A DNA stretch of 41,706 nt from Terriglobales bacterium (GTDB lineage Bacteria > Acidobacteriota > Terriglobia > Terriglobales > Acidobacteriaceae): assembly GCA_035624455.1 (NCBI GenBank), contig DASPRM010000117.1, positions 1 through 41,706 of the forward strand, given 5' to 3'. Position 1 is the stretch's first letter, and every line of letters begins with the position of its first letter. Positions 4,113 through 24,752 of this stretch are shown here, one piece after another. The notes below the pieces were generated by a model. It saw only the letters and a list, made by a program, of their open reading frames with translations, had not been told where the DNA came from and did not search any database. The position numbers and the translations under genes are program-made.

Positions 4113-4140
4113 TTAGCAATGCATTCAGCACTCAGCCGGC
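4113..4140 (+). repeat. Degenerate heptamer array, copy A
   Basis: Four consecutive 7-base units (TTAGCAA, TGCATTC, AGCACTC, AGCCGGC) just after truA. It belongs to the TCAGCAN family described in the findings. Confidence 0.6.
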
Positions 4141-4181
4141 GTAATGGAGCGACGCGGCGCCCTCGACTGCACGTCGGAGGA

Positions 4182-4282
4182 GTCGAGCTGCGCTCGACCT
4201 GAACGGACGAGACGTCCGTTCCCACGTGATTTTGGAAGAACTGCAGATTCCCTGACGGCATGAGAAGCCGCTCGTGATGACG
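4182..4282 (+). repeat. Intergenic repeat of about 100 bases, copy 1
   Basis: It begins with the palindrome GTCGAG-CTGCG-CTCGAC. A perfect 9-bp hairpin GAACGGACG-AGA-CGTCCGTTC follows (4201-4221), then CCCACGTGA, CTGCAGAT and a GTGATGACG end. The same order of blocks occurs at 10214-10310. Confidence 0.7.
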
Positions 4283-4385
4283 GGCGCGGCGCTCACTGGA
4301 ATGGGTAAGTCCGAAGTGGGACGGTGGGTCGGGTGGCGCTTTGGCTAACTTTCCAATCCTACTCATCTGGGATAATCTGCGGCTA

Positions 4386-5957
4386 ATGGCGAGTGAGCCC
4401 CAAGTCATCGCGCGGCACCTGGCCTCGCACAATCCTGCTGACGGTTCCCTGGTTGGCGAATACGCGATCGCCAGCACTGCCGAGGTACAGCATGCGGTCG
4501 ATCGCGCCCACGCCGCGCAGAAGCTCTGGCGTGATACCCCCTTGCGTGAGCGGATCGAAGTGATCCGCCGCTTTCAACGAGTCCTTCACCAACATAAAGA
4601 CGAAGTGGCCGAGGCCGTCACGCGTGAAGCCGGAAAGCCGCTGGTCGAGGCGCTACTGACGGAAGTGCTGGTAGTGCTCGATGCGGCGCGATTTCTGATC
4701 GAAAATGCCTTTCGCCTGCTGCGCCCCGAGGCGGTGCCGCACGGCAATCCCATCATGAAGACCAAACGCGGCAAGCTGGTTCGCGAACCCTACGGCGTCA
4801 TCGGCATCATTTCGCCGTGGAATTACCCGTTCTCGACGCCAGCGACCGAAACGCTTGGCGCGCTGGTGGCGGGCAATGCCGTGGTGCTGAAGCCGTCGGA
4901 ATTTACACCGGGAGTGGCTCTCAAGCTCGCGGAGTTGTTCGAAAAAGGCGGACTGCCGGAGGGTCTGCTTCAGGTAGTTGCAGGCGAGGGCGAAACTGGC
5001 GCGGCGCTAATTGCCTCCGGCATCGACAAGCTGATCTTCACCGGAAGCGTGGCCACGGGAAAGCGCGTAGCCCAGGCGGCAGCGGAGCGCCTGTTACCCG
5101 TAGTGCTGGAACTGGGCGGCAAGGACGCCATGGTTGTGCTGGATGATGTTGACGTGGACGTAGCTGCGGCCGGAGCGGTGTGGGGCGCGTTTGTCAATGC
5201 CGGGCAGGCGTGCCTTTCGGTCGAGCGCTGTTATGTGCACCGCAGTCTTTATGAACAATTCGCTGCCGCTTGCGCGGAAAAAACAGCGAAGCTGAGAGTG
5301 GGCAACGGATTGGATGCGGAAACAGATGTCGGTCCGCTGATCCATGACCGGCAGTTGCGAATCGTCGAAGAGCATGTGGCCGACGCGGTGGCGCGCGGCG
5401 CGCGAGTGCTGACAGGCGGCCGGCGGCTGCCCGCGCTGGGTCCCAACTTTTATGCGCCTACGGTGCTGGCAGGCGTAGATCACTCGATGCGCATTATGCG
5501 CGAGGAGACCTTTGGTCCGGTGCTGCCGATCATGGCCTGCGACAGCGAGAGCGAGGCGATCCGGCTCGCAAACGATTCCGAGTTCGGTCTGTCGGCAAGC
5601 GTGTGGACGCGTGACCGCGCGCGCGGCGAAAAGCTCGCCGCCCAACTCGATGCCGGCACAGTGATGGTGAACGATGCCGTGACGTGCTTCGGTATCAGCG
5701 AAGCGCCGCACGGAGGCTTCAAAGCCAGCGGCCTGGGCCGGACCCACGGGCGCATGGGGCTGGAGGAGATGGTGCGAGTGAAGTACATCGACTCCGACCT
5801 GCTGCCGTCTGTGAAGAAAGTCTGGTGGTACGGCTACGGCACCGAGTTCTCGCGGCAGATGCGGGGTTTCGTGGATTTTCTGTTTGCGCCGGGCCTTGGG
5901 AGGCGCTTGCGTGGAGGATTGCAGTCGCGGGCGTCACTGTTTCGCAAGCGGTTGTAA
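4386..5957 (+). CDS. NAD(P)-dependent aldehyde dehydrogenase
   Basis: Oxidises an aldehyde to the acid with NAD(P)+. The 523-residue protein has all core ALDH residues: oxyanion Asn146 in SPWNYPF, coenzyme segment KPSE (169-172) and FTGSVATGK, general base Glu242 in LELGGKD, catalytic Cys276 in GQACLS, and EETFGPVLP. It is about 40-50 residues longer than a typical ALDH. The extra C-terminus is hydrophobic/basic (VDFLFAPGLGRRLRGGL, ending RKRL) and may attach it to a membrane, as in fatty-aldehyde enzymes. The substrate cannot be told from sequence. I use ATG 4386, where homology begins; the frame is open to a TTG at 4341. No operon partner is evident. Confidence 0.92.
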   Translation: MASEPQVIARHLASHNPADGSLVGEYAIASTAEVQHAVDRAHAAQKLWRDTPLRERIEVIRRFQRVLHQHKDEVAEAVTREAGKPLVEALLTEVLVVLDAARFLIENAFRLLRPEAVPHGNPIMKTKRGKLVREPYGVIGIISPWNYPFSTPATETLGALVAGNAVVLKPSEFTPGVALKLAELFEKGGLPEGLLQVVAGEGETGAALIASGIDKLIFTGSVATGKRVAQAAAERLLPVVLELGGKDAMVVLDDVDVDVAAAGAVWGAFVNAGQACLSVERCYVHRSLYEQFAAACAEKTAKLRVGNGLDAETDVGPLIHDRQLRIVEEHVADAVARGARVLTGGRRLPALGPNFYAPTVLAGVDHSMRIMREETFGPVLPIMACDSESEAIRLANDSEFGLSASVWTRDRARGEKLAAQLDAGTVMVNDAVTCFGISEAPHGGFKASGLGRTHGRMGLEEMVRVKYIDSDLLPSVKKVWWYGYGTEFSRQMRGFVDFLFAPGLGRRLRGGLQSRASLFRKRL

Positions 5958-6031
5958 GGGAGGGTACCTGTCGTCAGGTTTGATGTGTCGGGACTTCCGC
6001 CAACCGCATCTCTCAGGAGTAGGAGCTTGTC

Positions 6032-6442
6032 ATGGTAAATGCACTTACCGATCAGATCGTCGCCTTACTTGATCGCCGTAATTTTGCGCATCTTGCAACC
6101 ATCATGCCGGATGGCTCACCTCACAGCGCGCCGGTGTGGTTAGGACGCGAAGGCCAGCACATCCTGGTCTGCACGTCGGAGAACTCCATCAAAGCGAAGA
6201 ATGCGCGCCGCGATCCGCGAGTTGCAATTTCAATTGTCGACCTGAAGGATCCTTACAGCGAAGTGCAACTGCGTGGGCGGGTCGTCGAGCAGCGGCCTGA
6301 TCCTGATTTGAAGCATCTGGATGCGATCTCGCAAAAGTACGTGGGCAAGCCGTTCCCGTTTCGCGACGAACCACAAGTGGCTCTGGTGATCGAGGTCGAC
6401 AAGGCCCGATACATGAAGGAGCCGTTCGAGCATGCAGCGTAG
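6032..6442 (+). CDS. PPOX-class flavin/F420-dependent protein
   Basis: 136-residue split-barrel protein of the pyridoxamine-5'-phosphate oxidase superfamily. Diagnostic stretches are FAHLATIMPDGSPHSAPVW at the N-terminus and the phosphate-binding NSIKAKNARRDPRVAISIVD. Its length and pattern match the 'PPOX class F420-dependent' family, which reduces substrates with F420H2 or FMN. Which cofactor is used is not visible, and no F420 biosynthesis gene is nearby. ATG 6032 is supported by AGGAG eight bases upstream. It follows the aldehyde dehydrogenase by 74 bases and could be co-transcribed with it. Confidence 0.85.
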   Translation: MVNALTDQIVALLDRRNFAHLATIMPDGSPHSAPVWLGREGQHILVCTSENSIKAKNARRDPRVAISIVDLKDPYSEVQLRGRVVEQRPDPDLKHLDAISQKYVGKPFPFRDEPQVALVIEVDKARYMKEPFEHAA

Positions 6443-6629
6443 GTCGTGAGTCACTTCACGCCGACGTATCATTCAGGTGGGTGACTTCCGCTTTGCGCCT
6501 GGCGTTGGCAGGCTCCAGCCGGGGGTTCCGGTGTGACCTGCGACCTTCATTGCTTTACCGCCTTCCGGTAGAATATCTGTGTTTCCCGCTTTTATTTCTG
6601 CGCATTCGTCTGCGCTCGCGAGGTAGATC

Positions 6630-6971
6630 GTGGCGACCATTGAGGCCAAAGTCGGAGAAGGTTCCATTCCGCAGCTCCCCAATCACAAGGTGAAGATCAA
6701 GAAGCCGGGGCAACGCGCCTGCAACGAGAAGGACGAGAAGAACAAGCTCTGCGGTGGGCACCTTAAGCGCTGGTACTACCTCGCGGATGTGTTGGAGCAG
6801 GAATGCGGCGATGTGGAGAAGACCTTCGGCCGCGATGCGGAAATCTATCGCTGCGAGCACTGCAAGACGCTATACCTGCCGAACTCGGTGGATCCGCGCG
6901 GACTCAACGTGGCCGGCCGCGGCCAGATCTCGACCTTTGGACTCACCTTGCCGCCGAAGGATGGAAAGTAA
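6630..6971 (+). CDS. Conserved hypothetical protein with zinc-ribbon-like cysteines
   Basis: I do not recognise a named family. The 113-residue protein is soluble and charged. Cysteines are at 31, 41, 59, 75 and 78; the pair C75-EH-C78 in YRCEHCKTLYLP and the earlier C31/C41 (CNEKDEKNKLC) could form a four-Cys zinc site. The GTG start at 6630 is preceded by GAGGT at a 5-base spacing, a good ribosome-binding site. The upstream gap (6443-6629) contains a TAGAAT -10-like box near 6569, but no matching -35. It is followed by a heptamer array. A nucleic-acid-binding or redox-sensing role is possible but unproven. Confidence 0.7.
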   Translation: MATIEAKVGEGSIPQLPNHKVKIKKPGQRACNEKDEKNKLCGGHLKRWYYLADVLEQECGDVEKTFGRDAEIYRCEHCKTLYLPNSVDPRGLNVAGRGQISTFGLTLPPKDGK

Positions 6972-6973
6972 GA

Positions 6974-7001
6974 AGCAACAACCAGCACTCAGCATTCAGC
7001 C
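6974..7001 (+). repeat. Degenerate heptamer array, copy B
   Basis: Four 7-base units (AGCAACA, ACCAGCA, CTCAGCA, TTCAGCC) start just after the stop codon of the zinc-ribbon gene. A separate hairpin GGACGGG-(8 nt)-CCCGTCC follows at 7025-7046. Confidence 0.65.
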
Positions 7002-7127
7002 ATAAGGAGCTGTCATCTTGAGGAGGACGGGGAGGAATTCCCGTCCGAGTCGAAAGACTGGGTGTTTGTTCTCACCACGAGCCTGTCCATTCGCGCTACA
7101 CTTCTTACAGATGTGGGTGTGCCGAGC

Positions 7128-8384
7128 ATGAATGTCTCCGAACTTATCTACGACTGGAACAATATTCCCGGGCCGGACTATAAGCCCAAAGGCCCGGTGT
7201 TGCTGAACGATGAGTCGCTGCGCGATGGTCTGCAATCGCCATCGGTGCGCGATCCAACCATTCCTGAGAAGATCGAGATCCTGCACCTGATGGAAACGCT
7301 CGGGATCAACATGCTCGATATCGGGCTGCCAGGCGCAGGTCCACGTGCCATAGAACACTCGCTCGCCCTGGCACGTGAGATTGCACAGCATCGGATGACG
7401 ATCAAGCCCAACTGCGCGGCGCGCACGCACGAGAACGATATTCGCCCCATCGCCGACATTTCGCAGCGTGCCGGCATTCCAATCGAGGCCGCCACGTTTA
7501 TCGGCTCCAGTCCCATTCGCCGCTACGCCGAGGGCTGGACCGACGAGTTCCTGCTTCGGACCAGCGAAAAGGCAGTGAAGTTTGCCCGCTCACTCGGTCT
7601 GGAAGTGATGTACGTCACCGAGGACACGACGCGCTGCGACCCAGAGACCGTGAAGCGGCTATATACGGCTGCGATCGAAGCGGGAGCGCGGGCCATTGTG
7701 CTATGCGACACCACCGGACATGCCACCCCCATGGGGGTTTTGCACCTGGTGCGTTTCGTGATCCACGAAGTCGTGGAACCCTCGGGCGAGAAGATCCGCG
7801 TGGACTGGCATGGCCACAGCGATCGCGGCATGGGGCTGGCCAACTCGCTGGCGGCGCTGATCGCGGGAGCACATTGCGTACATGCCTGTGGGCTGGGAAT
7901 CGGCGAGCGCGTGGGCAATACCCAGATGGACCAGATGTTGGTTAACCTGAAGCTGATGGGTATCGAGCCCTGGGACAAGCAGGATCTGACCTGCTTAAAG
8001 GACTATTGCCTGGCGATCTCGCGGGCCACCGGCCTGCCCATTCCGCGAAATTACCCGGTCGTGGGAGAAGATGCCTACCGAACCGGAACGGGAGTGCATG
8101 CGGCAGCGGTGATCAAGGCTTACAAGAAGAACGATTTGGAACTAGCTAACAGTGTCTATTCGGGTGTGCCGGCGCATCACTTCGGCCTGGAGCAAATCAT
8201 CGAGATCGGTCCCATGAGCGGCAAGTCGAACATCATCTTCTGGCTGGAGCGGCGCGGAATCCAGGCGCACGATGGGATCGTGGAACGCATTTATGAGCGC
8301 GCCAAAGCTTCAGATCGCGTGCTCACCGAGACAGAGATCCTGGCTTGTTGTGTGCCGGTGCGCGCGGCCGGAGCGCAGTCTTAG
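7128..8384 (+). CDS. DRE-TIM metallolyase, isopropylmalate/homocitrate synthase-like
   Basis: Predicted TIM-barrel enzyme doing Claisen-type condensation or retro-aldol cleavage with a divalent metal. The 418-residue protein has the DRE motif in NDESLRDGLQSPSV (Arg32, Asp33) and the metal-binding HGHSDRGMGLANS (His228, His230). The sequence then runs GERVGNTQMDQML, as in LeuA/homocitrate synthases. The motif is mixed: GLQ resembles HMG-CoA lyase, while the HxH...G and GERVGN parts resemble LeuA. The usual HxHND is HGHSD. At 418 residues it lacks the ~120-residue LeuA regulatory domain, so leucine feedback is unlikely. ATG 7128 fits homology better than GTG 7062. No leucine, lysine or mevalonate genes are adjacent, so the pathway is unknown. 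Confidence 0.8.
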   Translation: MNVSELIYDWNNIPGPDYKPKGPVLLNDESLRDGLQSPSVRDPTIPEKIEILHLMETLGINMLDIGLPGAGPRAIEHSLALAREIAQHRMTIKPNCAARTHENDIRPIADISQRAGIPIEAATFIGSSPIRRYAEGWTDEFLLRTSEKAVKFARSLGLEVMYVTEDTTRCDPETVKRLYTAAIEAGARAIVLCDTTGHATPMGVLHLVRFVIHEVVEPSGEKIRVDWHGHSDRGMGLANSLAALIAGAHCVHACGLGIGERVGNTQMDQMLVNLKLMGIEPWDKQDLTCLKDYCLAISRATGLPIPRNYPVVGEDAYRTGTGVHAAAVIKAYKKNDLELANSVYSGVPAHHFGLEQIIEIGPMSGKSNIIFWLERRGIQAHDGIVERIYERAKASDRVLTETEILACCVPVRAAGAQS

Positions 8385-8567
8385 AGAGCGGCTCCGCTAC
8401 TCCGAAGTAACTCACCAACGTCATGTTTCCTGTGGCCTTAGAGTCGGCTACACTGCAGGTGTTGTTCCGCTCGTACCCTCCCATAAACAAATAGTCTCTG
8501 CCCGGCCGAAGTGTTCTTCCGGCCAGCGAACCACCAGGAAGAGAATTTGGGAGATTCGAATCTGTCT

Positions 8568-8903
8568 ATGGCCTCTCCTTCTGATTTTGAGTCGCTGCTG
8601 GGAATCGCCCGTATGCCACTGGGCGAGCGCAATGAGGATCGCGTCCCCGCTGAGGACGAAGCTACTGTCTACGTGACCGATGGTGACCGCCTGTTTGAGG
8701 TACACGCGCGTCTGGTGGATATGAGCCCGCATGGCCTGCGCGTAATGCATCGCTATCCGGGGATGCCGATTGGGCGCGAGATTCGCGTGCTGCATCCCTG
8801 CGGAGCACAGAGGGCGCTGGTGATCTGGAACCGTAAAGTGGAAGGCGGATACGAGAGTGGAATGCGGATTGTAACAGAGATCATGGATTTAACTGGCCGA
8901 TAA
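8568..8903 (+). CDS. PilZ-like domain protein
   Basis: A 111-residue soluble protein, probably a small beta-barrel. It shows a PilZ-type arrangement: an Arg-containing segment (ERNEDRVP) followed by ARLVDMSPHGLRVMH, close to the D/NxSxxG half of the c-di-GMP site, and then GREIRVL and WNRKVEGGYESGMRIV. PilZ domains bind c-di-GMP; the spacing here is typical but the RxxxR half is weak, so binding is uncertain. The start is unclear. ATG 8568 lacks a close Shine-Dalgarno, whereas TTG 8547 lies four bases after AGGAAGAG and GTG 8511 is also in frame. A strong terminator follows, so this is the end of a transcription unit. Confidence 0.65.
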   Translation: MASPSDFESLLGIARMPLGERNEDRVPAEDEATVYVTDGDRLFEVHARLVDMSPHGLRVMHRYPGMPIGREIRVLHPCGAQRALVIWNRKVEGGYESGMRIVTEIMDLTGR

Positions 8904-8922
8904 GGGTCGCTTCCTCCTGCTT

Positions 8923-8954
8923 AGCCGCTCCGCGGGTTGGGGCGGCTTTTTTTT
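8923..8954 (+). terminator. Rho-independent terminator after the PilZ-like gene
   Basis: A 9-bp stem AGCCGCTCC / GGGGCGGCT with one G-U pair and a 7-base loop, followed directly by eight Ts. It lies 20 bases after the stop codon. Confidence 0.92.
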
Positions 8955-8955
8955 A

Positions 8956-9003
8956 AGCACTCAGCAACAGCAATTAACACTCGGCACTTAGCAACTAGCG
9001 CCC
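8956..9003 (+). repeat. Degenerate heptamer array, copy C
   Basis: Seven units, six of 7 bases and one of 6 (AGCACTC, AGCAAC, AGCAATT, AACACTC, GGCACTT, AGCAACT, AGCGCCC), immediately after the terminator T-tract. Confidence 0.65.
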
Positions 9004-9081
9004 GGCAGAACGCGGCTGGATCACGGAAGGCCGTGCTGGCGGTCACGGGTGTTCGGCGAGATTGTGGATAGGCTTTGATGT

Positions 9082-10122
9082 ATGGCGGAGATCCTTCACA
9101 GGGAGCGTTATGCTCCAATGGGTGCAGGTGAAGCCGGGCGGAGCCGACGAAGCCTTGTGCGAGTGCTGTGGTGTGCAGTTCTCGCCGTGCTCGGCGCAAG
9201 CGCCTTTATCTACTCCTCGTACCAGCGAGACATTCGAGCGGCGCGGGCACGGATTGCCTCGGGCAGCACGGTTGTGAACACTGCTTGCGGTCCGATTCAG
9301 TATGCGGAAGTGGGCCACGGTCTTCCGCTCCTGATAATTCACGGTGCAGGCGGGGGATTCGATCAGGGGCTGGATGCATTTGGCGGTCTGAGCGGTCAGG
9401 GCTTCCGGGTGATCGCGCCATCGCGATTTGGCTATCTGCGAACCCCGCTTCCTCAGGATGCGTCGCCTGCGGCGCAGGCGGACGCACATGCGTGTCTGCT
9501 GGACGCACTGGGAGTGCGCACCGCGGCTGTCATCGGAGCCTCCGCGGGAGGACCCTCCACGATCCAATTTTGCCTGCGCCATGCTGAGCGCTGCTCGGCG
9601 ATGGTGCTGCTTGTTCCTCTGGCTTATGCGCCACGTGCATCTGAGCCGAGGAGACCACCCGCGGTGGTCGCGAGAATCCTGGATGCCAGTCTGAAATCTG
9701 ATTTTGTCTTCTGGGCGATGATGAAGCTGGGCCGCGACACCATGATCCAGACAATTCTGGCTACGCCGATGGCCGACTTCAAGCGGGCTCCTGCCGAGGA
9801 GCAAAAGGCTGTGCTGCAGATGCTCGAACATATCCTACCTATCAGTCCGCGGGAACAAGGGCTGCGCAACGATGGGGCGATTGCAACATCGCTGCCCCGC
9901 GTCGACCTGGAGCACGTACGAGTTCCCACCCTGGCCATCAGCGTTGAGAACGACGGGTATGGGACCTTTGCCGGCGCTCGCTATACGGCCGATCACATCC
10001 CGGGTGCGCGCTTTGTCGGATACAAAAATGGCGGGCATTTGCTGGTTGGGCATCAAAGGGAGCTAACGAACGAGCTGGTGGAATTTCTGAGGTCTCACTG
10101 CGCGCGAGCCGGGGGGAATTAG
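9082..10122 (+). CDS. Membrane-anchored alpha/beta hydrolase
   Basis: 346-residue hydrolase. One N-terminal transmembrane segment (about residues 27-45, LVRVLWCAVLAVLGASAFIY) places the catalytic domain outside the cytoplasm or at its edge. The fold is shown by the oxyanion HGAGGGFDQ, the nucleophile elbow GASAGG (Ser154), a late Asp in ENDGYG (Asp291) and the catalytic His319 in GGHLLVGH. A cap region (residues 185-270) is helical. The substrate is not predictable. The ATG at 9082 has only a poor ribosome-binding site; ATG 9118 (M13) is an alternative and would still include the anchor. The gene starts after a heptamer array and is followed by two stacked repeat elements, so it appears to be transcribed alone. 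Confidence 0.8.
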   Translation: MAEILHRERYAPMGAGEAGRSRRSLVRVLWCAVLAVLGASAFIYSSYQRDIRAARARIASGSTVVNTACGPIQYAEVGHGLPLLIIHGAGGGFDQGLDAFGGLSGQGFRVIAPSRFGYLRTPLPQDASPAAQADAHACLLDALGVRTAAVIGASAGGPSTIQFCLRHAERCSAMVLLVPLAYAPRASEPRRPPAVVARILDASLKSDFVFWAMMKLGRDTMIQTILATPMADFKRAPAEEQKAVLQMLEHILPISPREQGLRNDGAIATSLPRVDLEHVRVPTLAISVENDGYGTFAGARYTADHIPGARFVGYKNGGHLLVGHQRELTNELVEFLRSHCARAGGN

Positions 10123-10151
10123 GTTAGGCGCTCTTTGAAATTCAACCGCGA

Positions 10152-10203
10152 GGTCCTTCGACTCGGACGCGGAGTGGTTCGCCGCGTCGTCGCTCAGGAT
10201 AAC
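10152..10203 (+). repeat. TCCTTCG...GGAT(A)AC hairpin element, copy 1
   Basis: Starts GGTCCTTCGACTCGG and ends CGCTCAGGATAAC, with an internal GACGCGG...CCGCGTC hairpin. It is one of six related elements in the window. Confidence 0.55.
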
Positions 10204-10213
10204 GTTACCGCAA

Positions 10214-10310
10214 GTCGAGCTGCGCTCGACCTGATCTGAGGAAAACGTTCGTTCCCACGTGACCTTGAAAACTGCAGATCTCCCTCGGTAAAAAACCACT
10301 CGCGATGACA
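10214..10310 (+). repeat. Intergenic repeat of about 100 bases, copy 2
   Basis: Carries the same blocks as 4182-4282 in the same order: GTCGAGCTGCGCTCGACCTGA, CGTTCGTTCCCACGTGA, ACTGCAGAT and CGCGATGACA. A separate palindrome GACAGGCGAGATCGCCTGTC lies just downstream at 10326-10345. Confidence 0.7.
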
Positions 10311-10392
10311 GTCTTGAATCTTGTGGACAGGCGAGATCGCCTGTCGCGCACCAACCTGCGCATGCGAAACTAGGGGTTGGAAGAAGGGCAGG

Positions 10393-13499: not shown

Positions 13500-13504
13500 A
13501 TTTG

Positions 13505-13729: not shown

Positions 13730-13779
13730 GATAAAACTGAGGGAACGGAGGCCGCCTTCTCGCATCTAAACGAGCAACC

Positions 13780-14103: not shown

Positions 14104-14134
14104 GGGGCTAGCGGAAGCAAAACGCCTCGCCACG

Positions 14135-15574: not shown

Positions 15575-15640
15575 TGGGCTCCAGGGGGCGGAGACGCGGT
15601 GCGTGAGATTAGTCTATCGGAATGTTGGCGATATGGGTTA

Positions 15641-15675
15641 CTGATTGCTAAGTGCTGATTGCTGACGGCTGACTG
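15641..15675 (-). repeat. Degenerate heptamer array, copy D (reverse orientation)
   Basis: Five exact-length 7-base units (CTGATTG, CTAAGTG, CTGATTG, CTGACGG, CTGACTG), i.e. the TCAGCAN family read from the other strand. It lies between the divergent starts of the P450 and the interrupted exported gene. Confidence 0.7.
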
Positions 15676-15693
15676 CTCAATTCGAGGTGTTGC

Positions 15694-16416
15694 TTGGTTA
15701 AAGGAATCGTATTCGCGGTTTTCCTGACTGTGTTCGCTGCGGCCCAGGTCAAGGCCCCGGAGCGCAGGGTTGAGAATAATGTGATTGTTTCTGAGCACGA
15801 TCCCAAAGTGCGAATCGAGCTGCCGAAATCCGCGCAGTACGTGGGAGCAGATCGATGAGATTTGTATCATATCGCCGATTGCGAACTGCATGTTTGGGTG
15901 GAAGCCGACAAGCAAAAGAATGTACAGCGGCTCTATTGGGTGCAGTTCGAGGGTTATCTGCCCACGAAACCCGATTTGCATCATACATACGATTCTCCGT
16001 GGCACACCACCATCGGCGGTCTGGATTTCTATGTGGATACCTGGACACGCGAGCGTGACCAGAAGACCCGACCCGGTTCAGACCGCGAGCACGTACAGAC
16101 GCTGATCCGGGCGAAGGGATACCAAATGCCAGCGGGAATGATGGACGTCCGCCTGGTGCACCTGTTGGACAAGCAGATGCGCAAAGAGCTGATGATTATC
16201 TATGGCGAAGATCTGGCGCCCACAGGACATTCCGCAGTCGACCTGAAGAAGGGCGGCGCCGCCTACGATCAATGGCCTGAGATCGAGAAGGGCCTGCTGG
16301 AGAGAGCGGAGAAGCAGGTGAAGATTGAGGCGGGCAGGCAATCCCAGTCAGCGCTTGGCATTCAGCAAATAATGGCAGCGGGAAATTTGTCGCTCGCGGT
16401 CTTCCCAACTCGCTAA
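15694..16416 (+). pseudogene. Exported protein gene interrupted by an in-frame TGA
   Basis: A single frame runs from TTG 15694 to TAA 16416, broken only by TGA at 15856-15858 (codon 55). The first part encodes a signal peptide (VKGIVFAVFLTVFAAAQ) and about 35 mature residues ending YVGADR. Directly after the TGA the frame continues DLYHIADCELHVWVEADKQ with no shift. The start has GAGGTG four bases upstream. The simplest reading is TGG (Trp) changed to TGA, either a real nonsense mutation or a sequence error; the downstream part (LYWVQFEGYLP, GGLDFYVDTW, a C-terminal helix) still looks like a selected protein. The family is not recognised. It overlaps the convergent channel gene by four bases. 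Confidence 0.7.
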
Positions 16417-17105: not shown

Positions 17106-17152
17106 AGCGGAAGATGCCGCCGATGGTACACCGTTTTCGCAGGACTGGGCAC

Positions 17153-17866: not shown

Positions 17867-18251
17867 GGTTTTCCTTGAAAGCTGGAAGTGCAGATCCCTC
17901 GACCGCTACGGCACCCTTGTGATGACAATAATAAAACGCGAGGACCGATGACAGGGTGGATGTTATGTATTCTAACCACCAATTTTCATTGCTTACCGGC
18001 GAGTCCTGTGGCACTCAAGCCATCTTTTAGCTCAAGGAGGCAGTTTACTGAGCGATCTCCGCGACAAAAATGATTTCTCGCGAGCGTGCGGCCGCGAAGG
18101 GACTGGCTTTCCAGTCCCCGAACACGTCATGCACCGCCGGCCCCGAACGCGCGATCAGGGCCTCTACATGTTGTCGCGATGGAAAGCGCAGCGTACTTGT
18201 CGTGGTGAGCGTCATGTCTGGAACGGACTTTACGGTTAACGCTCAAAACTT
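17867..18251. other. Intergenic region between DUF72 and LigD-polymerase genes
   Basis: No gene is supported here. It contains a GGATGAC-type element (17889-17927), an inverted repeat GGGACTGG-CTTT-CCAGTCCC near 18100, and an orphan AAGGAGG (18038-18044, plus strand) that is not followed by a usable start codon. Confidence 0.5.
17889..17927 (+). repeat. TCCCTCG...TGATGACA element, copy 3
   Basis: It reads GTGCAGATCCCTCGACCGC and ends CTTGTGATGACA. It matches the 3' half of the ~100-base repeats at 4182 and 10214 (CTGCAGAT...GATGAC). Confidence 0.55.
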
Positions 18252-19322
18252 TCACCGCTTGCTCGCGCCCGTTGAAGCTTTCGCTTTCGATTTCGATCTG
18301 CCCGCACGTTTAGGCGTCGCCGGACGCTCCGCCACGACAGATCTCACTTCTTCCACGCCCTTCTTTCCCGGACCTTCTCGCGCGAGGGCGGAACAGGCAT
18401 CCAGGAGCTTCTCCAGGCTGGGCAGCTTCTGCTTTTTCTTCAGCACATCCGCGTAGAGATCGCCGTGTTGCTCAGAGCGCTCGACAACCTGATCGCTCCG
18501 GAATACCAGTGTGTTCATATCTTTCTTCCTGAGGCAGTTCTCAACCTCATCCCAGGTTACCGGCGTCGAAACAGTGGGCTGTTCCCTGGCGCGCAAGGAA
18601 TACACGCAGATTGTGGTCTTGTGGTCGTCGTTCTGGCTCCAGTCCACCAGTACCTTGCCCACGCGTAAGGACTTCTTCATGTCCGAGACCACCTGCTGGG
18701 GAAAGATTTTTTCCAGCGCCCGAGCCAGGGTATGAGCGAATGACTTCGTCTCCTCATAGCCAACCGCGGTGTTCAGCGGCACATAAACCTGCAGGCCCTT
18801 GGAGCCTGAAGTTTTGGGAAAGCTATCGAGCGAGAGGCGATCGAAGAGGTCGCGAACCCATACTCCCACCTGGCAGCACTGCACGATATTGGCCGGTGGA
18901 CCAGGGTCGAGATCAAAGACCAGAAAAGTAGGACGGCTGATGTCCTTGCCCTGCGACAGCGATGTATGCAGTTCGATATCGGCGAGATTGGCGGCCCAGA
19001 CCAGTGAAGGCAGGTCTTCGATCAGGCAGTAGTCCATGTAGCGATTATTCCCTTCACTCCAGACAGCCACGGTTTTCAGCCATGGCGGCCGGTGGCTGGG
19101 ACAATTTTTTTCATAGAAGAATTGCCCGGTCACCCCGTTGGGGTAGCGCTTCATGGTAAGCGGACGTCCCTTCAGGTGAGGCAGCAGGACAGGCGAAATA
19201 CGCACGTAATAGTCGATGACCTGACCCTTGGTGAACCCAGCGTCGGGATAGAGCACCTTTTCCAGGTTCGATAAGCTCAGCTTGCGTCCTTCAATCTCGA
19301 CGGTCGTCGTCTTCGGGGCCAA
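18252..19322 (-). CDS. Stand-alone LigD-type polymerase/primase
   Basis: Polymerase domain of bacterial non-homologous end joining (archaeo-eukaryotic primase fold). It would add templated or untemplated, often ribo-, nucleotides at DNA breaks. The 356-residue protein starts LSNLEKVLYPDAGFTKGQVIDYY, as LigD-PolDom does. It has catalytic FDLDPG (Asp137, Asp139), SGSKGLQVYVPL and a third acid in VLVDWSQN (Asp227). After residue ~300 there is only a low-complexity basic tail (KKKQK, KRAGRSKSKAKAS), with no ligase or phosphoesterase domain. The TTG start at 19322 is well supported by CAGGAG seven bases upstream. No Ku gene is in the window. A heptamer array lies in its 5' region. Confidence 0.92.
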   Translation of the reverse strand: MAPKTTTVEIEGRKLSLSNLEKVLYPDAGFTKGQVIDYYVRISPVLLPHLKGRPLTMKRYPNGVTGQFFYEKNCPSHRPPWLKTVAVWSEGNNRYMDYCLIEDLPSLVWAANLADIELHTSLSQGKDISRPTFLVFDLDPGPPANIVQCCQVGVWVRDLFDRLSLDSFPKTSGSKGLQVYVPLNTAVGYEETKSFAHTLARALEKIFPQQVVSDMKKSLRVGKVLVDWSQNDDHKTTICVYSLRAREQPTVSTPVTWDEVENCLRKKDMNTLVFRSDQVVERSEQHGDLYADVLKKKQKLPSLEKLLDACSALAREGPGKKGVEEVRSVVAERPATPKRAGRSKSKAKASTGASKR

Positions 19323-19335
19323 GGGATTCTCCTGA

Positions 19336-19370
19336 ATTAGCGATTAGCGATCAGCAATCAGCAATCAGTC
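19336..19370 (+). repeat. Degenerate heptamer array, copy E
   Basis: Five consecutive 7-base units: ATTAGCG twice, ATCAGCA twice, ATCAGTC. It lies between the divergent LigD-polymerase and M16 genes, only three bases from the LigD Shine-Dalgarno. Confidence 0.75.
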
Positions 19371-19436
19371 AACGCCGGTTTGACAAACCTATGCACTCTC
19401 CATAACCTCGGAGACTGATTGTGGGACGGAGGTTGC

Positions 19437-20978
19437 ATGCGGTCGGGCGTTCGCCGAATTTCTCTTCTTCTACTGCTGCTCTCATCCTTTTTTTCTCCGC
19501 ACTCCCGGGCGCAGGACCTGGCGTCTTTTGAGAAGCGCATACAGGTTAAGAAGCTGCCGAATGGCCTAACGATAATACTTTGTGAACGCCACGAGGCGCC
19601 GGTCTTCTCGTTTTTCACACTGGTGAACGCCGGCTCAGCGCAGGATCCCAAAAGCAAAACCGGGCTGGCGCACATGTTCGAGCATATGGCATTCAAGGGC
19701 ACCGACACCATCGGGACTACGGATTATGCAGCGGAAAAAGTCGTGCTCGGGCAAATTGAAGAGGCGTATGCCGCGTATATCGCGGAACGCGACAAGCCTT
19801 TCGGTCGAGACGAGAAGAAATTGGCTGATCTGGAGAAGCGCTGGAAGCAGCTCGTCGAAGACGCCGAGAAATACGTGGTTCGAAATCAGTTTGGAACTTT
19901 CGTGGAAGATAATGGCGGCGTCGGCATGAACGCTCAGACCGCAGAAGATGAAACCATCTATTTCTACTCCATGCCCGTGAACCGGCTGGAGCGTTGGGCA
20001 TTTTTGGAGTCGTCGCGCTTCGCGCAGCCGGTGATGCGCGAATTCTACCTAGAGCGCGACGTCGTCTACGAAGAGCGGCGCATGAGCGTGGAAAGCCGAC
20101 CCATCGGGCGCATGATCGAGCAGTTCCTGTCTGCAGCCTTCATGGCGCATCCCTACCGCAATCCTGGGATTGGCTGGCCCTCCGACGTGCACAGCTTTTC
20201 GGCCACAGATGCGATGAATTTCTACGACACCTACTACGTACCCTCGAATATGGTGGTCGCGGTCGTGGGCGATCTCGATCCCGCTCGCGATTGGCCGGTC
20301 ATCGAGCGATATTTCGGACGCCTGCCTACGCGTCCTCAACCTGACGAGCGCACCACGACGGAACCGCCACAGAATTCCGAACGCCGCGTGGTGCTCAAGG
20401 AAACCGCGCAGCCGTTCTATGTCGAGGGATATCACCGCCCTGACTATCTAGACAAGGACGACGCCGTGTACGACGCCATCACCGACCTTGTGTCCAATGG
20501 CCGCACGTCGCGTCTCTATCGCGCGCTGGTGCGGGATCAGAAAATTGCGCTGGAGGCGGCGGGATTCAGCGGACTTCCGGGAACCAAGTATCCGCATCTG
20601 TTCGCGTTTTATGCGGTTCCTAACCGCGGACACACACCGGAGCAGGTCCGGAATGCGATTCACGCCGAAATCGAGCGCATCAAGAAAGAGGACATCTCCG
20701 ACACCGAATTGCAGATGTTCAAGACGCGCGCGCGGGCCGCGCTGATTCGCAGCCTGGGCAGCAATTCGGGATTGGCGCAGGAACTTGCCATCATGCAGAC
20801 TCGCTACGGGGACTGGCGGGAACTGTTTCGCCAACTCGATCGCATCGACAAAGTGACGCAGGCAGACATCCGGCGCGTTGCCAATGCCACTTTCAGTGAC
20901 ACAAATCGCACGATTGCAATCATTGAGACGGTGCAGCCAGCAGGGAAGGCGGCGAGCCAGCCCTCGGGAGGACAGTGA
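19437..20978 (+). CDS. M16 zinc peptidase, catalytic subunit
   Basis: Exported insulinase-family metalloprotease, 513 residues. A signal peptide (RRISLLLLLLSSFFSPHSRAQ) precedes the peptidase domain. The inverted zinc motif is intact: H78-x-x-E81-H82 in LAHMFEHMAFKG, with the distal glutamate at ERDVVYEERRM (about 211-212). A helical, charged insert of ~60 residues (about 90-150, IEEAYAAYIAERDKP...) separates motif and distal Glu more than usual. The second domain ends with the inactive M16_C fold. ATG 19437 follows GGAGG by four bases. Its stop overlaps the next start by one base, so it is co-translated with the non-catalytic partner. Such pairs form heterodimers that degrade peptides in the periplasm. 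Confidence 0.92.
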   Translation: MRSGVRRISLLLLLLSSFFSPHSRAQDLASFEKRIQVKKLPNGLTIILCERHEAPVFSFFTLVNAGSAQDPKSKTGLAHMFEHMAFKGTDTIGTTDYAAEKVVLGQIEEAYAAYIAERDKPFGRDEKKLADLEKRWKQLVEDAEKYVVRNQFGTFVEDNGGVGMNAQTAEDETIYFYSMPVNRLERWAFLESSRFAQPVMREFYLERDVVYEERRMSVESRPIGRMIEQFLSAAFMAHPYRNPGIGWPSDVHSFSATDAMNFYDTYYVPSNMVVAVVGDLDPARDWPVIERYFGRLPTRPQPDERTTTEPPQNSERRVVLKETAQPFYVEGYHRPDYLDKDDAVYDAITDLVSNGRTSRLYRALVRDQKIALEAAGFSGLPGTKYPHLFAFYAVPNRGHTPEQVRNAIHAEIERIKKEDISDTELQMFKTRARAALIRSLGSNSGLAQELAIMQTRYGDWRELFRQLDRIDKVTQADIRRVANATFSDTNRTIAIIETVQPAGKAASQPSGGQ

Positions 20979-22528
20979 TGAGATCCTGGCACCTGCAGCG
21001 CGCACTTGTACTGGGACTGATGGCCGCCAGCTTCATCTCTCAGGCGCCTGGTCAGGCGGTCGCGCCTGCGCAGGCTCCCGCGGCACGACAGGCTCCCGCC
21101 GGTGCGCCAGTCGCACCGCAGATCTCAAAAGGCGAGGCCGAACTCGACCGCATAAAAGTTCCTCCGCTGCCCGCTTTTCATCCCGAGGAGCCGCAACGAA
21201 TCCAGCTGGCGAATGGGCTGGTTATTTTTCTGCAGCCCGATCACGAGCTGCCGCTGATCACCGGCATTGCGCGTATTCGCGGTGGGGCGCGTTCGGTTCC
21301 GGCTGACAAAACCGGAATGATGGATATTTACGGCGAAGTCTGGCGGACCGGCGGCACCAAGGCGCGTACTGGAGATCAACTGGACGACTACCTGGAAGCG
21401 CGTGCGGCCAAGATCGAAACCGACGCCACCGGCGATTCCACCGTGATTTCCTTCAACTGCCTGAAGGCAGATCTGGACAACGTGTTCGCCGCTTTCCTGG
21501 AGCTGCTGCGCGAACCAGCGTTTCGCAACGACAACCTCGAGATCGCCAAGCAGCAGATGTATGCCATCATCGCACGGCGCAACGACGACTCGGGAAGCAT
21601 TGCCCAGCGGGAATCGATGAAGCTGGCCTATGGCAAGGACAACCCGTACGCCCGCGTTCCCGAGTATTCCACGGTGGCCGCGGTAAGGCGGGATGATCTG
21701 TTGGCCTGGCACAGCCACTACTTGCAGCCGGGCAACATAATCCTGGGAGTTGTGGGAGATTTCGATCCCAAAGCGATGGAGGCCAAGCTGCGGCAGAGTT
21801 TTGAGAGCTGGCCCAAAGGAGCGGTGGCGGAGAAACCAGCAATGGACTTCACGTCCGCCAAGGCGGGATATTACTTCATCGATAAAGAAGATGTGAACCA
21901 GAGTTCGGTGCACATGGTCGCGCTGGGAATCCGCCGCGACAATCCTGATTACTATGCCATTCAGGTGATGAATGAAATTCTCGGTGGGGGCTTCTCCTCA
22001 CGGCTCTTTCAGGTGATCCGCTCCAAGCTGGCGCTGGCATACACCGTTGGTGGCGGGGTCGGAGCCAGTTGGGACCATCCCGGAGTCGAGCAGTTCAGTC
22101 TGGGTACCAAAAGCGCAACTACGGCTCAAGCGATCCGCGCGGTGAATGAACAGCTCGAGGGCATGCTGACCGGGCCGCCGACCACAGAGGAGATGAAACA
22201 GGCGAAGGACTCGATCCTGAACTCCTTCATCTTCAACTTTGACTCTCGGGAGAAAGTTCTGGTCGAGCGGATGCGATATGAGTTCTACGGTTATCCAGCG
22301 GACTTTCTGGAACGCTATCGCGCGGGCATTGAGAAAGTTACCGTGGACGACGTGATGCGGGTGGCGCGCAAGCACATCCATCCCGATCAGCTCGCGGTGC
22401 TGGTGGTTGGGAATTCCGGTGAGCTTGGGGATCAGCTCAAGAGCCTGGGGCAGGTGACGACGATCGACATCACCATCCCGCCACCGCCCGGGATGCCGGC
22501 GGGACAGCCGGCGGCGCCGGGGAAGTAG
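20978..22528 (+). CDS. M16 peptidase-like, non-catalytic partner subunit
   Basis: 516-residue M16 homologue. It has a signal peptide (HLQRALVLGLMAASFISQAPGQA) and an Ala/Pro/Gln-rich linker (AVAPAQAPAARQAPAGAPVAPQ). At the position of HxxEH it reads GMMDIYGEVWRTG, so zinc ligands are lost and the subunit cannot be catalytic. It keeps the substrate-binding GGGFSSRLFQVIRSKLALAYTV (Arg/Tyr pair) that beta-type subunits contribute in trans. ATG 20978 overlaps the upstream TGA (TGATG) and is preceded by GGGAGG; a GTG immediately before is an alternative. The C-terminus is Pro/Gly/Ala-rich (PPPPGMPAGQPAAPG). Confidence 0.92.
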   Translation: MRSWHLQRALVLGLMAASFISQAPGQAVAPAQAPAARQAPAGAPVAPQISKGEAELDRIKVPPLPAFHPEEPQRIQLANGLVIFLQPDHELPLITGIARIRGGARSVPADKTGMMDIYGEVWRTGGTKARTGDQLDDYLEARAAKIETDATGDSTVISFNCLKADLDNVFAAFLELLREPAFRNDNLEIAKQQMYAIIARRNDDSGSIAQRESMKLAYGKDNPYARVPEYSTVAAVRRDDLLAWHSHYLQPGNIILGVVGDFDPKAMEAKLRQSFESWPKGAVAEKPAMDFTSAKAGYYFIDKEDVNQSSVHMVALGIRRDNPDYYAIQVMNEILGGGFSSRLFQVIRSKLALAYTVGGGVGASWDHPGVEQFSLGTKSATTAQAIRAVNEQLEGMLTGPPTTEEMKQAKDSILNSFIFNFDSREKVLVERMRYEFYGYPADFLERYRAGIEKVTVDDVMRVARKHIHPDQLAVLVVGNSGELGDQLKSLGQVTTIDITIPPPPGMPAGQPAAPGK

Positions 22529-22530
22529 GA

Positions 22531-22577
22531 TTCAGCACTCAGAAGCCGTCTTTGGTTTTGAAAGGGCACGGCTTCAA
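22531..22577 (+). repeat. Short heptamer array (copy F) followed by a truncated REP-like element
   Basis: TTCAGCA and CTCAGAA (22531-22544) are two heptamer units. From 22555 the sequence matches 23 bases of the REP-like element at 27656-27678 with one mismatch (TTTTGAAAGGGCACGGCTTC here), but the second arm of its hairpin is missing. Confidence 0.5.
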
Positions 22578-22700
22578 GTGGGAGGTGAAAACAAAGCCTC
22601 GACGCTCTCAGTCGCGCTTCAACTCTGTACGCCCCCGCGCAGCCCCCGGTACCTCCCTCGCCATTCCTGGCGTCCTCGGAACTATGAAAACATTCTGCGG

Positions 22701-23642
22701 GTGGCGTCTCTTCCAGCCAAAGACGCACTGCTGTCCACCTTTCTCGACTATTTGAAGGTCGAGAAGGGATTGGCGCAACTGACCGTCACTGCCTATGAAC
22801 GCGACCTGCTGCAGTTCGCATATCATTTAGCGAAGCAGAAGCGTAGCTTGCCCCAGGCTCGACGGCAGGATGTTCATGCATTTCTTGCGCGCCTTTTCTC
22901 CGACCAATTGGATGGACGCTCGGTGGCGCGCAAGCTCTCCGCGCTGCGTCACTTCTATAAGTATCTGCTGCTCGACCGCCACATCCAGGAAGATCCTACC
23001 CTGAACATCGAGACGCCGAAACAATGGAGGGTGCTCCCCAAGTCGCTCTCGCGCACGCAAGCGAAACAATTGATGGAGACGGAGCGGCCGCTGGCGGACA
23101 AGAAGCAACAACAGATGCTCATGGCGCGCGACCGCGCGCTACTGGAGATGCTGTACGGCGGCGGCTTGCGAGTTTCGGAGGTCGCCAGTGTCCGGCTGGA
23201 AGATTTGAAGGCCGACTTGGGATACGTGATGGTACGGGGCAAAGGAGACAAGGATCGCCTGGTCCCGCTTGGGCAGCCGGCGCTGCAGGCGATCAAGCAA
23301 TACCTGAGATCCTCGCGGCCTGCGCTTGAGGCCGGTAAGAACTCACCCTTCCTTTTTCTGGGCCGTGGTGCACGGCGGCTGACGCGGCAACGAATCTGGC
23401 AGATCGTACGCAACGCCGGTCAACCTGCGGGATGCCAAGCCAGCCCGCACATGCTGCGCCACAGCGCGGCGACGCACATGGTCGAAGGAGGCGCTGATCT
23501 GAGGACGGTGCAGACCATTCTCGGTCACTCCGACATCTCGACCACCCAGGTGTACACGCACCTGGCGCTCGATCGCCTCAAGAGCGTCCATCAGAAACAC
23601 CACCCGCGCGGGAAGAGAAGCGCGCGGGCTTTGGCAGTCTGA
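22701..23642 (+). CDS. Tyrosine recombinase, XerC/XerD type (first of two)
   Basis: Site-specific recombinase of 313 residues. An N-terminal SAM-like DNA-binding domain ([27 protein letters not shown]) is followed by the catalytic domain. Catalytic residues are recognisable in order: Arg in GGGLRVSEV, Lys in [11 protein letters not shown], His/Arg in [11 protein letters not shown], His in [10 protein letters not shown], Tyr in QVYTHL. Length and motifs fit XerC/XerD, which resolve chromosome dimers at dif. The frame is open to 22578, but that part reads through a repeat; GTG 22701 is the first sensible start. It is one base away from a second recombinase gene. Confidence 0.85.
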
Positions 23643-23643
23643 C

Positions 23644-24570
23644 GTGGCATCCGCGAGACCAAATCCGAAACCTCAAGGCGCAATGGAAAAAGCTGCCGCC
23701 CTGTTCGTTCAGGGACTGCGGGAGAGAAATGCTTCGGCGCACACGGTGCGGGCGTACACGCGCGACTTGGCCGAATTCGCGGCTCACGTAGGCAAGAACA
23801 GAAAGCCCGAGGCTGTAGATCATGTGCACATCCGAGGCTTCCTGTCCGAGCTTTACGGCCGCGGGTTGACCAAGTCGTCGGTAGCGCGGTCGCTGGCGGC
23901 GGTCCGCTCGTTTTATAAATGGCTGGCGCGCGAAGGGCTGGCTAAGCAGAATCCGGCGGCGCTGGTGAGTACGCCCAAGCTCCCGAAGAAGCTGCCGCGC
24001 GTGCCGACGGCGGAAGAGATCAATGCAGTGCTGGATAGCGACATGCCGGAGCATGCCGCTTTTCCGGAGCGCGACCGCCTGCTGCTGGAATTGCTTTACG
24101 GATGCGGGCTGCGCAACTCGGAACTGGTGGGGATCAACCTGGATGACGTCCACTGGTCGAATGAGGCGTTGCTGGTGCGAGGCAAGGGGAAGAAGCAGCG
24201 GCTGGTGCCATTAGGGGACGCGGCGGCGCAGGCCATCCGTGAGTATCTCCCGAAGCGGCAGGAGATCGCTCGCGCCAACAGCAGAGTTGCGCCGGCATTA
24301 CTGATCAATTTGCGTGGCGGACGGCTAACAACACGCAGCGTCGGCAGAATCGTGAAGGGGATCGCTGTTGCCAAAGGCTTGCCACCCGATGTTCATCCGC
24401 ACACGCTGCGCCATGCCTTCGGCACCCATATGCTGGAGGAAGGCGCGGATCTGCGCGCGATTCAGGAGATGCTCGGCCACGAGCGCCTTTCCACCACGCA
24501 GCGCTACACGCAGCTCTCGATGAAGCACATGCTCGAGGTGTACGACTCCACGCATCCGAGAGCGAAGTGA
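23644..24570 (+). CDS. Tyrosine recombinase, XerC/XerD type (second of two)
   Basis: 308-residue recombinase. The N-terminal core-binding domain reads [31 protein letters not shown]. The catalytic set is Arg in GCGLRNSEL, Lys in [31 protein letters not shown] and nucleophile Tyr in QRYTQL; all are present. GTG 23644 begins one base after the stop of the first recombinase, so the two are certainly co-transcribed. Overall similarity to its neighbour is moderate, so this is not a recent duplication. One may be XerC and the other XerD, but I cannot assign which. Confidence 0.9.
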
Positions 24571-24598
24571 ATCAGCACACAGCAGTCAGCATTCAGCA
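24571..24598 (+). repeat. Degenerate heptamer array, copy G
   Basis: Four consecutive units ATCAGCA, CACAGCA, GTCAGCA, TTCAGCA begin at the first base after the recombinase stop codon. A palindrome GTCGAGG-CGCA-CCTCGAC-like hairpin follows near 24637-24655. Confidence 0.75.
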
Positions 24599-24717
24599 CG
24601 GTCCCCATCCCAGCCGTTTTTTGGCTAGGTGGGAGGTCGAGGCGCAGCCTCGACAGAGCGCATCCCCTTTACTTCACCTTGCTGTTCCTGCGTGTCCTTT
24701 GTGGTTAATTTCTTTGG

Positions 24718-24752
24718 CTGATTACTGACCGCTGACTACTGACTACTGATTG
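24718..24752 (-). repeat. Degenerate heptamer array, copy H (reverse orientation)
   Basis: Five 7-base units CTGATTA, CTGACCG, CTGACTA, CTGACTA, CTGATTG. It faces copy G, giving an inverted pair around 24599-24717. Confidence 0.75.

What the first reader, a model, noticed from the sequence alone, without database searches (positions are those of the whole stretch)
4113..24752. At least eight degenerate heptamer arrays (TCAGCAN) in intergenic DNA
Eight non-coding spots (4113, 6974, 8956, 15641, 19336, 22531, 24571, 24718) contain 2-7 consecutive 7-base units related to TCAGCAN, almost all kept in exact 7-base register although the unit sequence varies. Most copies sit right after the stop codon or terminator of plus-strand genes; two are in reverse orientation. 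Heptamer arrays of this kind (STRRs) are known from cyanobacteria; I know of no described function in Acidobacteria. A second 7-base family (AGTTTGA) is at 25934. The register suggests slippage plus some length selection, or a mobile repeat seed.
Basis: seen in the sequence. Interest (0 to 1): 0.6.

Follow-up and report, generated by a model that had tools for sequence, protein, structure and literature searches.

The report
Degenerate heptamer arrays at gene edges
Short DNA arrays whose units share six letters and have a nearly random seventh sit against gene ends in some soil bacteria; they are real and turn over fast, they resemble heptamer repeats described in other bacteria, and simple copying slippage does not explain them well.

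Summary
The window carries 9 two-unit TCAGCAN seeds against 0.1 in shuffled DNA. In 418 kb of its genome, period-7 arrays number 27 between genes against 0.4 in shuffles. Six positions of the unit are largely fixed; the seventh is nearly random. In 47 of 49 arrays the nearest coding edge lies behind the TCAGCAN strand, in 24 a stop codon within 9 bp. About half of the longer arrays have a complementary partner in the same gap.

Plain slippage fits badly: neighbouring seventh bases are not more alike than chance, and arrays do not share seventh-base strings. Elsewhere TCAGCAN arrays are mostly homogeneous (90 of 119 loci; other Acidobacteriota families), with reversed polarity in two of those sets. 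Between two species at 88% identity, 5 of 13 sites keep the array, 2 carry another heptamer array, 6 lack it.

The architecture is not new: GGGAATC heptamers in Xanthomonas and Nostoc show the same gene-edge polarity and inverted pairs (PMC4692102), discussed there with G-quadruplexes, which TCAGCAN cannot form. I call it a new variant of a known kind; the generating process is unknown.

The parts
4113..4137 (+). Weak array after the stop codon of the gene at 3318-4109 (tRNA pseudouridine synthase): one unit out of step, then TCAGCAC TCAGCC
   Evidence: sequence; detected at 4125-4137, 15 bp from the 3' edge; Pfam
6975..7001 (+). Array GCAACAA CCAGCAC TCAGCAT TCAGCC, 3 bp after the stop of ORF 6630-6971
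8956..8999 (+). Loose array (AGCACTC AGCAA CAGCAATT AACACTC GGCACTT AGCAACT AGC) about 50 bp after the stop of ORF 8511-8903, behind a GC-rich stretch and a T run
   Evidence: one search detects only two units (8954-8966)
15639..15679 (-). Six-unit array; TCAGCAN on the minus strand, between the P450 gene 14135-15574 (minus) and a small ORF called at 15694 (plus; call uncertain)
19336..19370 (+). Five-unit array about 14 bp upstream of the called start of the LigD primase-polymerase gene 18252-19322 (minus), reading away from it
22531..22544 (+). Two units TCAGCAC TCAGAA, 3 bp after the stop of the M16 peptidase gene 20978-22528
24571..24598 (+). Four-unit array 1 bp after the stop of the tyrosine recombinase gene 23683-24570; left arm of an inverted pair
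   Evidence: complementary partner found (4 of 100 shuffles as good)
24718..24752 (-). Five-unit array, TCAGTAN type on the minus strand; right arm of the inverted pair with 24571-24598
25934..25966 (+). Second family: GAAGTNN-like repeat right after the stop of the HD-domain gene 24893-25930

Best explanation
These are intergenic heptamer arrays of a kind already seen in a few bacterial lineages, in a lineage-specific degenerate form. My reading is that the lineage has, or recently had, a process that writes new 7-nt units (six preferred bases plus one nearly free base) into DNA next to genes. Arrays then change quickly by 7-bp indels, whole-array changes of unit type, and loss. Selection against damage to genes confines them to intergenic edges; about half end up with an inverted partner and can fold into intergenic hairpins. 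Shown: unit structure, lack of likeness between neighbouring seventh bases, gene-edge polarity, pairing, turnover, and mostly homogeneous counterparts elsewhere. Inferred: that arrays arise already degenerate and that no single locus carries an essential function. Unknown: the enzyme or process, and why the polarity is so strict.
For: Unit profile in G000, 240 units: positions 1-6 agree with TCAGCA in 82-97%; position 7 is A 90, G 63, C 47, T 40. Adjacent seventh bases equal: 23 of 136 in G000 (0.264 expected if independent), 28 of 93 in G049 (0.259), 6 of 20 in G018 (0.298); by contrast 15 of 15, 101 of 103 and 9 of 9 in three sets from other families of the phylum. Among listed exact three-unit matches the first two N agree in 4 of 19 (G000), 8 of 41 (G018) and 7 of 30 (G049), and in 111 of 114 listed for 20 genomes outside the family (typed from the lists; the list is capped per genome, and only 3 of the family's 24 positive genomes were counted). 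No excess sharing of N strings between arrays. One unit type dominates: 35 of 46 intergenic period-7 arrays found de novo in G000 have a TCAGCAN consensus. Turnover: of 13 orthologous sites between G063 and G066 (88.0% identity) 5 keep the array with 7n indels or substitutions, 2 carry another heptamer array in the same place, 6 show none (my reading of the alignments; 1 of the 6 has a doubtful ortholog). In the five one-sided sites with a clear ortholog (L264, L268, L270, L273, L276) the two N inside the exact three-unit core differ. Gene-edge polarity 47 of 49; after merging neighbours 44 of 46 against 23 expected, and 28 of 46 within 10 bp of an edge against 7.6 expected.
Against: No enzyme is identified. 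Gain cannot be told from loss at the one-sided sites, because no outgroup was placed; if all were losses, the arrays could be old and N could have drifted under selection on the other six bases. Polarity is weaker in other genomes of the family: 25 of 35 in G049, 6 of 8 in G018. 36 of 60 genera of the family show no exact match. Mixed N is not confined to this family: 29 of 119 loci of the cross-phylum scan have at least one mixed array, many with a single odd unit but some well mixed, for example L153, L178, L179, L203 and L231. In the few aligned orthologous arrays, differences fall on several positions besides N (Y 8/23, R 10/23, after-C 11/23, N 14/22; G and C were fixed by the search), so N is not uniquely variable there. 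In G000 neighbouring N are less alike than chance and N two units apart more alike (36 of 92), so they are not strictly independent; a 14-bp duplication step is one possibility.
Confidence: 0.4

Rival explanations
1. Binding arrays: a nucleic-acid-binding protein recognises TCAGCA spaced every 7 nt; purifying selection holds six bases, the seventh is free. Proposed in similar form for TAACTGA repeats (PMC4679880) and for the Geobacter metallireducens classes (PMC2700814).
For: Unit profile with one free position; one dominant motif in the genome and the same motif in 24 of 60 genera; strict location and polarity.
Against: Sites turn over fast and switch to other unit types in place; TCAGCAC arrays of other families have reversed polarity; the genes next to arrays in the window share no evident function.
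Confidence: 0.25
2. Hairpin elements: the arrays are arms of intergenic stem-loops that end or protect transcripts, comparable to bacterial palindromic units.
For: All 26 pairs folded (gaps under 330 bp; G000 9, G049 5, G018 3, f26 set 9) pair at least part of one arm with the other, z -1.3 to -17.4 against 30 mononucleotide shuffles each; in G000 convergent gene pairs are over-represented, 15 of 46 against 58 of 393 gaps over 60 bp; polarity sign does not matter for a hairpin, which fits the reversed polarity.
Against: Only 19 of 39 (G000) and 16 of 30 (G049) arrays of three or more units have a complementary partner beyond chance; in G049 convergent pairs are not over-represented (5 of 32 against 40 of 232); arms of a pair are not more alike than arms of different pairs (p 0.38 and 0.60); solitary arrays keep the polarity; pairs also occur between divergent genes.
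Confidence: 0.2
3. Ordinary slippage repeats (long simple sequence repeats) that decay with age.
For: 7-bp and 14-bp indels between orthologous arrays; long arrays with few N types exist in the genus, for example about 18 units with almost only C or T at N in G065; heptamers are common among bacterial repeats (PMC4679880 introduction, citing Mrazek 2007).
Against: Decay would hit all seven positions; only one is random. N is not alike between neighbours. The polarity is unexplained.
Confidence: 0.15
4. Mobile element ends: arrays are terminal inverted repeats of short elements inserted between genes.
For: Inverted pairing; one-sided presence at orthologous sites; Y1 transposase genes occur in 24 of 24 array genomes against 28 of 36 others (Fisher p 0.017; counts per genome also higher, p 0.003), with no correction for kinship or genome size.
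Against: Spacers have no common body; no shared N strings; arms not alike.
Confidence: 0.07

Closest known systems
GGGAATC / (GGGANTN)n heptamer repeats of Xanthomonas and GGGGA(C/T)T of Nostoc (Rehm 2015, PMC4692102; abstract, sections 10, 14, 15, 16 and found passages read)
   Same: Seven-base units with free positions; 2-26 units; mostly intergenic; nearer to the ORF behind the repeat strand (Xanthomonas: 28 against 160 nt) irrespective of ORF direction; sense strand after stops, antisense before starts; 70 and 75 convergent inverted cases in the two Xanthomonas genomes; no preferred gene class.
   Different: Their units form G-quadruplexes and prefer four units; TCAGCAN has no G run. [quoted passage not shown] here 5 of 13 at 88% identity.
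TAACTGA direct repeats of Beggiatoaceae, Cyanobacteria and Bacteroidetes (MacGregor 2015, PMC4679880; abstract, introduction, parts 1-2 of 5 of the results, summary section read)
   Same: Intergenic heptamers, a CTGA core, CTGA on the sense strand before start codons, that is TCAG reading away from the gene; some sets split by variant units.
   Different: One exact unit with few variants; mostly at start codons (147 of 170 sets towards a start codon); one inverted repeat only.
Predicted global regulator binding sites classes 1-3 of Geobacter metallireducens (PMC2700814; section 14, supplement legends and found passages read)
   Same: Short tandem repeats with degenerate positions (GTTGCTYN, TCTCCGTS, MTYCTGA); classes 1 and 2 in pairs on opposite strands at variable distance, class 3 drawn in the same strand-switching way.
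   Different: Octamers and others besides heptamers; position relative to genes was not given in what I read; IHF/HU binding is proposed, untested.
Cyanobacterial STRR heptamers (recalled, no paper read)
   Same: Tandem heptamers between genes.
   Different: Unit sequence; homogeneous units as recalled.
Homogeneous (TCAGCAC)n arrays in other Acidobacteriota families
   Same: Same six-base core, gene-edge location, inverted pairs.
   Different: N almost always C; opposite polarity: the nearer coding edge lies ahead of the TCAGCAC strand in 21 of 22 and 6 of 7.

Membership tests
Heptameric intergenic repeats of the Xanthomonas/Nostoc kind (PMC4692102) | Seven-base unit, two or more tandem units, mostly intergenic | tested here: met
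   27 intergenic, 0 coding at that threshold; 52 of 56 outside genes
Heptameric intergenic repeats of the Xanthomonas/Nostoc kind (PMC4692102) | Close to the ORF behind the repeat strand, whatever the ORF direction | tested here: met
   47 of 49 in G000; 25 of 35 in G049, 6 of 8 in G018; for the null
Heptameric intergenic repeats of the Xanthomonas/Nostoc kind (PMC4692102) | Convergent inverted pairs | tested here: met
   9 pairs in the G000 sample, 6 in G049, 3 in G018
Heptameric intergenic repeats of the Xanthomonas/Nostoc kind (PMC4692102) | G tract able to form a G-quadruplex | tested here: not met
   Unit TCAGCAN has no run of three G
Slippage-type simple sequence repeat / STRR | Neighbouring units identical, or decayed evenly at all positions | tested here: not met
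Slippage-type simple sequence repeat / STRR | Length changes in steps of one unit between relatives | tested here: met
   site A (7 bp), (L267 7 bp, L271 14 bp)
REP/MITE-like mobile element | Conserved body shared by many copies | tested here: not met
Known structured RNA (Rfam) | Match at gathering score over an array of the window | tested here: not met
   only a tRNA at 36057-36129
Protein-binding arrays | A protein that binds the unit | not testable with these tools
   No binding data

The most novel reading that the evidence does not exclude
A repeat-writing process, not slippage, makes these arrays: each round adds six specified bases and one untemplated base, for example repeated staggered breaks at a preferred hexamer, filled in by an end-joining polymerase that adds one extra base (the window itself encodes a LigD primase-polymerase), or a templated repeat-adding enzyme akin in logic to telomerase.
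Probability: 0.15. Interest if true: 0.85.

Novelty: new variant of a known kind. Interest (0 to 1): 0.45.

Why it matters
The same odd architecture (7-nt units, gene-edge polarity, inverted pairs) is published for G-rich heptamers, where G-quadruplexes were the focus. TCAGCAN arrays cannot form quadruplexes yet show it, so the cause is likely something more general about 7-nt repeats near genes. The contrast between degenerate arrays in one family and homogeneous arrays in others of the same phylum gives a clean comparison for how bacterial tandem repeats are made, and the arrays turn over fast enough to catch in closely related strains.

Tried and rejected
All-frame stop codon signal: after a stop the sense strand TCAGCAN carries no stops, and polarity is reversed in other families. 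Rho loading site: same objection, and arrays at 5' edges face the wrong way. Reverse-transcriptase generator: 7 of the 14 genomes with five or more matches have no RVT_1 hit, although RT is somewhat commoner in array genomes (14 of 24 against 10 of 36, p 0.031). End joining as a requirement: Ku in 21 of 24 array genomes and 28 of 36 others, p 0.50; G021 and G059 (99 and 100% complete) have two exact matches each and no Ku hit, G036 (53% complete) one match and no Ku hit; all 14 dense genomes do have Ku. Hairpin arms copied from each other: not supported in G000 and G049; in the pooled set of another family p was 0.04, which may reflect pooling of four genomes. Ordered N series along the array: no clear order, only fewer T near the gene. 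Literature search with the sequences themselves: 11 papers, judged from the listing to be unrelated. Limits: gene calls come from my own crude codon-bias caller, so start positions are approximate and 3' edges firmer; sets G000, G049 and the f26 set were fetched around known matches.
Full report
What is there. The window is contig C117 of a 4.39-Mb draft genome. Its phylum is Acidobacteriota: genome G295 of the same phylum shows the same counts and match coordinates as G455, the genome holding L149, a record titled Acidobacteria bacterium ACE_ACI1. The eight reported spots exist. Seeds of two TCAGCAN units number 9 in the window against a mean of 0.1 in 40 dinucleotide shuffles. The register is broken at 4113 and 8956 and kept in the other six, one of which has only two units.

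Genome-wide test. The exact three-unit pattern occurs 19 times in the genome, its reversed control never. De novo period-7 arrays in 418 kb number 27 between genes against 0.4 in shuffles, and 0 inside genes; at a lower threshold in 659 kb there are 46 between genes, 35 of them with a TCAGCAN consensus, and 15 inside genes, all of other types. In the same 659 kb (the window plus the stretches; contigs chosen mostly because they hold exact matches) I found 56 TCAGCAN arrays: 4 inside genes (all of two units), 52 outside, 49 with both neighbouring coding edges known. Other six-base cores gave 1-3 where TCAGCA gave 81.

Unit structure. In 240 units positions 1-6 agree with TCAGCA in 82-97%, with C-to-T as the main variant at positions 2 and 5; position 7 is close to random. 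Adjacent seventh bases agree in 23 of 136 cases, fewer than the 0.264 expected (permutation p 0.008, within-array p 0.0002); at distance two they agree in 36 of 92, more than expected. In G049 and G018 adjacent agreement is near chance (28 of 93, 6 of 20). N strings are not shared between arrays beyond a first-order Markov null in G000 or G049.

Contrast with other lineages. In 90 of these 119 every such array has one constant N; 29 have at least one mixed array (102 of 132 arrays constant, which extends the 80 loci). Of the eight loci titled as Acidobacteria or as subgroups of them, L135, L145, L193, L204 and L209 are mixed, L149, L227 and L238 constant. Mixed arrays also occur elsewhere, for example L153 (Betaproteobacteria), L178 (Thermoflexales), L203 (Poribacteria) and L231 (Saprospiraceae). 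In 396 genomes of the window's phylum 24 match, 20 of them outside its family; of 114 matches listed for these 20, 111 have equal N.

Position and polarity. Of the 49 arrays, 33 have a 3' coding edge behind them and 16 a 5' edge; in 47 the edge behind the TCAGCAN strand is the nearer one. After merging close neighbours: 44 of 46 against 23 expected, and 28 of 46 within 10 bp of an edge against 7.6 expected. The rule is weaker in G049 (25 of 35) and G018 (6 of 8). In two sets from other families the polarity is reversed: the nearer edge is behind in only 1 of 22 (G290, G094, G106, G345) and 1 of 7 (G295); a third, G258, gave 1 of 3 with 4 of 7 arrays inside ORFs. So the six-base core has no universal outward meaning; what recurs is hugging of coding edges and inverted pairing.

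Pairs and hairpins. I found 9 inverted pairs in the G000 sample, 6 in G049, 3 in G018, 9 in the pooled f26 set and 3 in G295. The 26 with gaps under 330 bp in the first four sets were folded, and in all of them at least part of one arm pairs with the other. Counting any complementary partner in the same gap, 19 of 39 arrays in G000 and 16 of 30 in G049 have one. Arms of a pair are not more alike than arms of different pairs in G000 or G049. In G049 some gaps are nested imperfect palindromes, with a GGAGGA-rich inner layer inside the heptamer layer.

Turnover. In nine species of the G049 genus (74-88% identity), orthologous gaps hold different heptamer arrays, an octamer array, or none. Between G063 and G066 (88.0%), 13 of 14 queried flanks had a match in the other genome, one of them doubtful. 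Reading the alignments, 5 sites keep the array with 7n indels or substitutions (L267, L269, L271, L272, L275), 2 have a different heptamer array in the same place (L265, L266), and 6 have none (L264, L268, L270, L273, L274, L276; the array of L268 lies inside an ORF; L274 is the doubtful ortholog). Aligned in-register arrays also show whole-array changes such as TCAGCAN to TTGGCAN.

Candidate genes. Y1 transposases, reverse transcriptases and Ku were counted in 60 genera. Reverse transcriptase is not needed, Ku is not strictly needed, and Y1 transposases are commoner in array genomes, without correction for kinship or genome size. The window encodes a LigD primase-polymerase beside an array, and a PolX-like polymerase; this may be coincidence.

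What is known. Rehm et al. 2015 (PMC4692102) describe GGGAATC and heterogeneous (GGGANTN)n heptamers in Xanthomonas, and GGGGA(C/T)T in Nostoc, with the same gene-edge polarity; convergent pairs are reported for Xanthomonas. MacGregor 2015 (PMC4679880) describes TAACTGA repeats facing start codons. The Geobacter metallireducens genome paper (PMC2700814) describes paired inverted degenerate octamers and heptamers. In what I read, none explains the architecture; the G-quadruplex idea cannot apply to TCAGCAN. My searches found no report of TCAGCAN arrays, within a library that holds only open-licence papers.

Verdict. Real, abundant in this genome, and in its degenerate form largely a trait of this lineage among those sampled; a new variant of a known, unexplained kind of bacterial repeat. 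The most informative new fact is that the seventh base is nearly random, and unlike between neighbours, in arrays that turn over fast, which plain slippage does not predict. The process and any function remain open.

Noticed in passing
L085-L100 (G049 stretches), for example L100:9403-9701 and L092:9010-9283: Gaps built as nested imperfect palindromes: heptamer arrays outside, a TTGAAACACGGAGGAACGGAGGA-like layer inside, its complement on the other side.
   Followed up: partly
L110:3050-3070, L121:6258-6286, L120:2711-2731: Octamer arrays of the type CGATCACC/CGATCTCC; the one in L110 stands at the gap where G049 has a heptamer pair.
   Followed up: no
G115, G178, G303, G438: The reversed control pattern is itself abundant in some other Acidobacteriota genomes (51, 44, 23 and 11 matches), so other heptamer families exist.
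   Followed up: no
window 18252-19322 (minus) and 30555-32315 (minus): A LigD primase-polymerase gene and a PolX-like polymerase gene lie in the same 42-kb window.
   Followed up: partly
window 22701-24570: Two adjacent tyrosine recombinase genes; array units stand before the first (22531) and right after the second (24571).
   Followed up: no
L244-L253 (G295:C1): TCAGCAC arrays, four to five units in six of the seven homogeneous ones and three in the other, often with a CTTCTTC or CTTTCTTC flank; possibly ends of a repeated element.
   Followed up: no
L268 (G066:C133): An array inside an open reading frame where the orthologous frame in G063 has a non-array sequence of almost the same length.
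   Followed up: no
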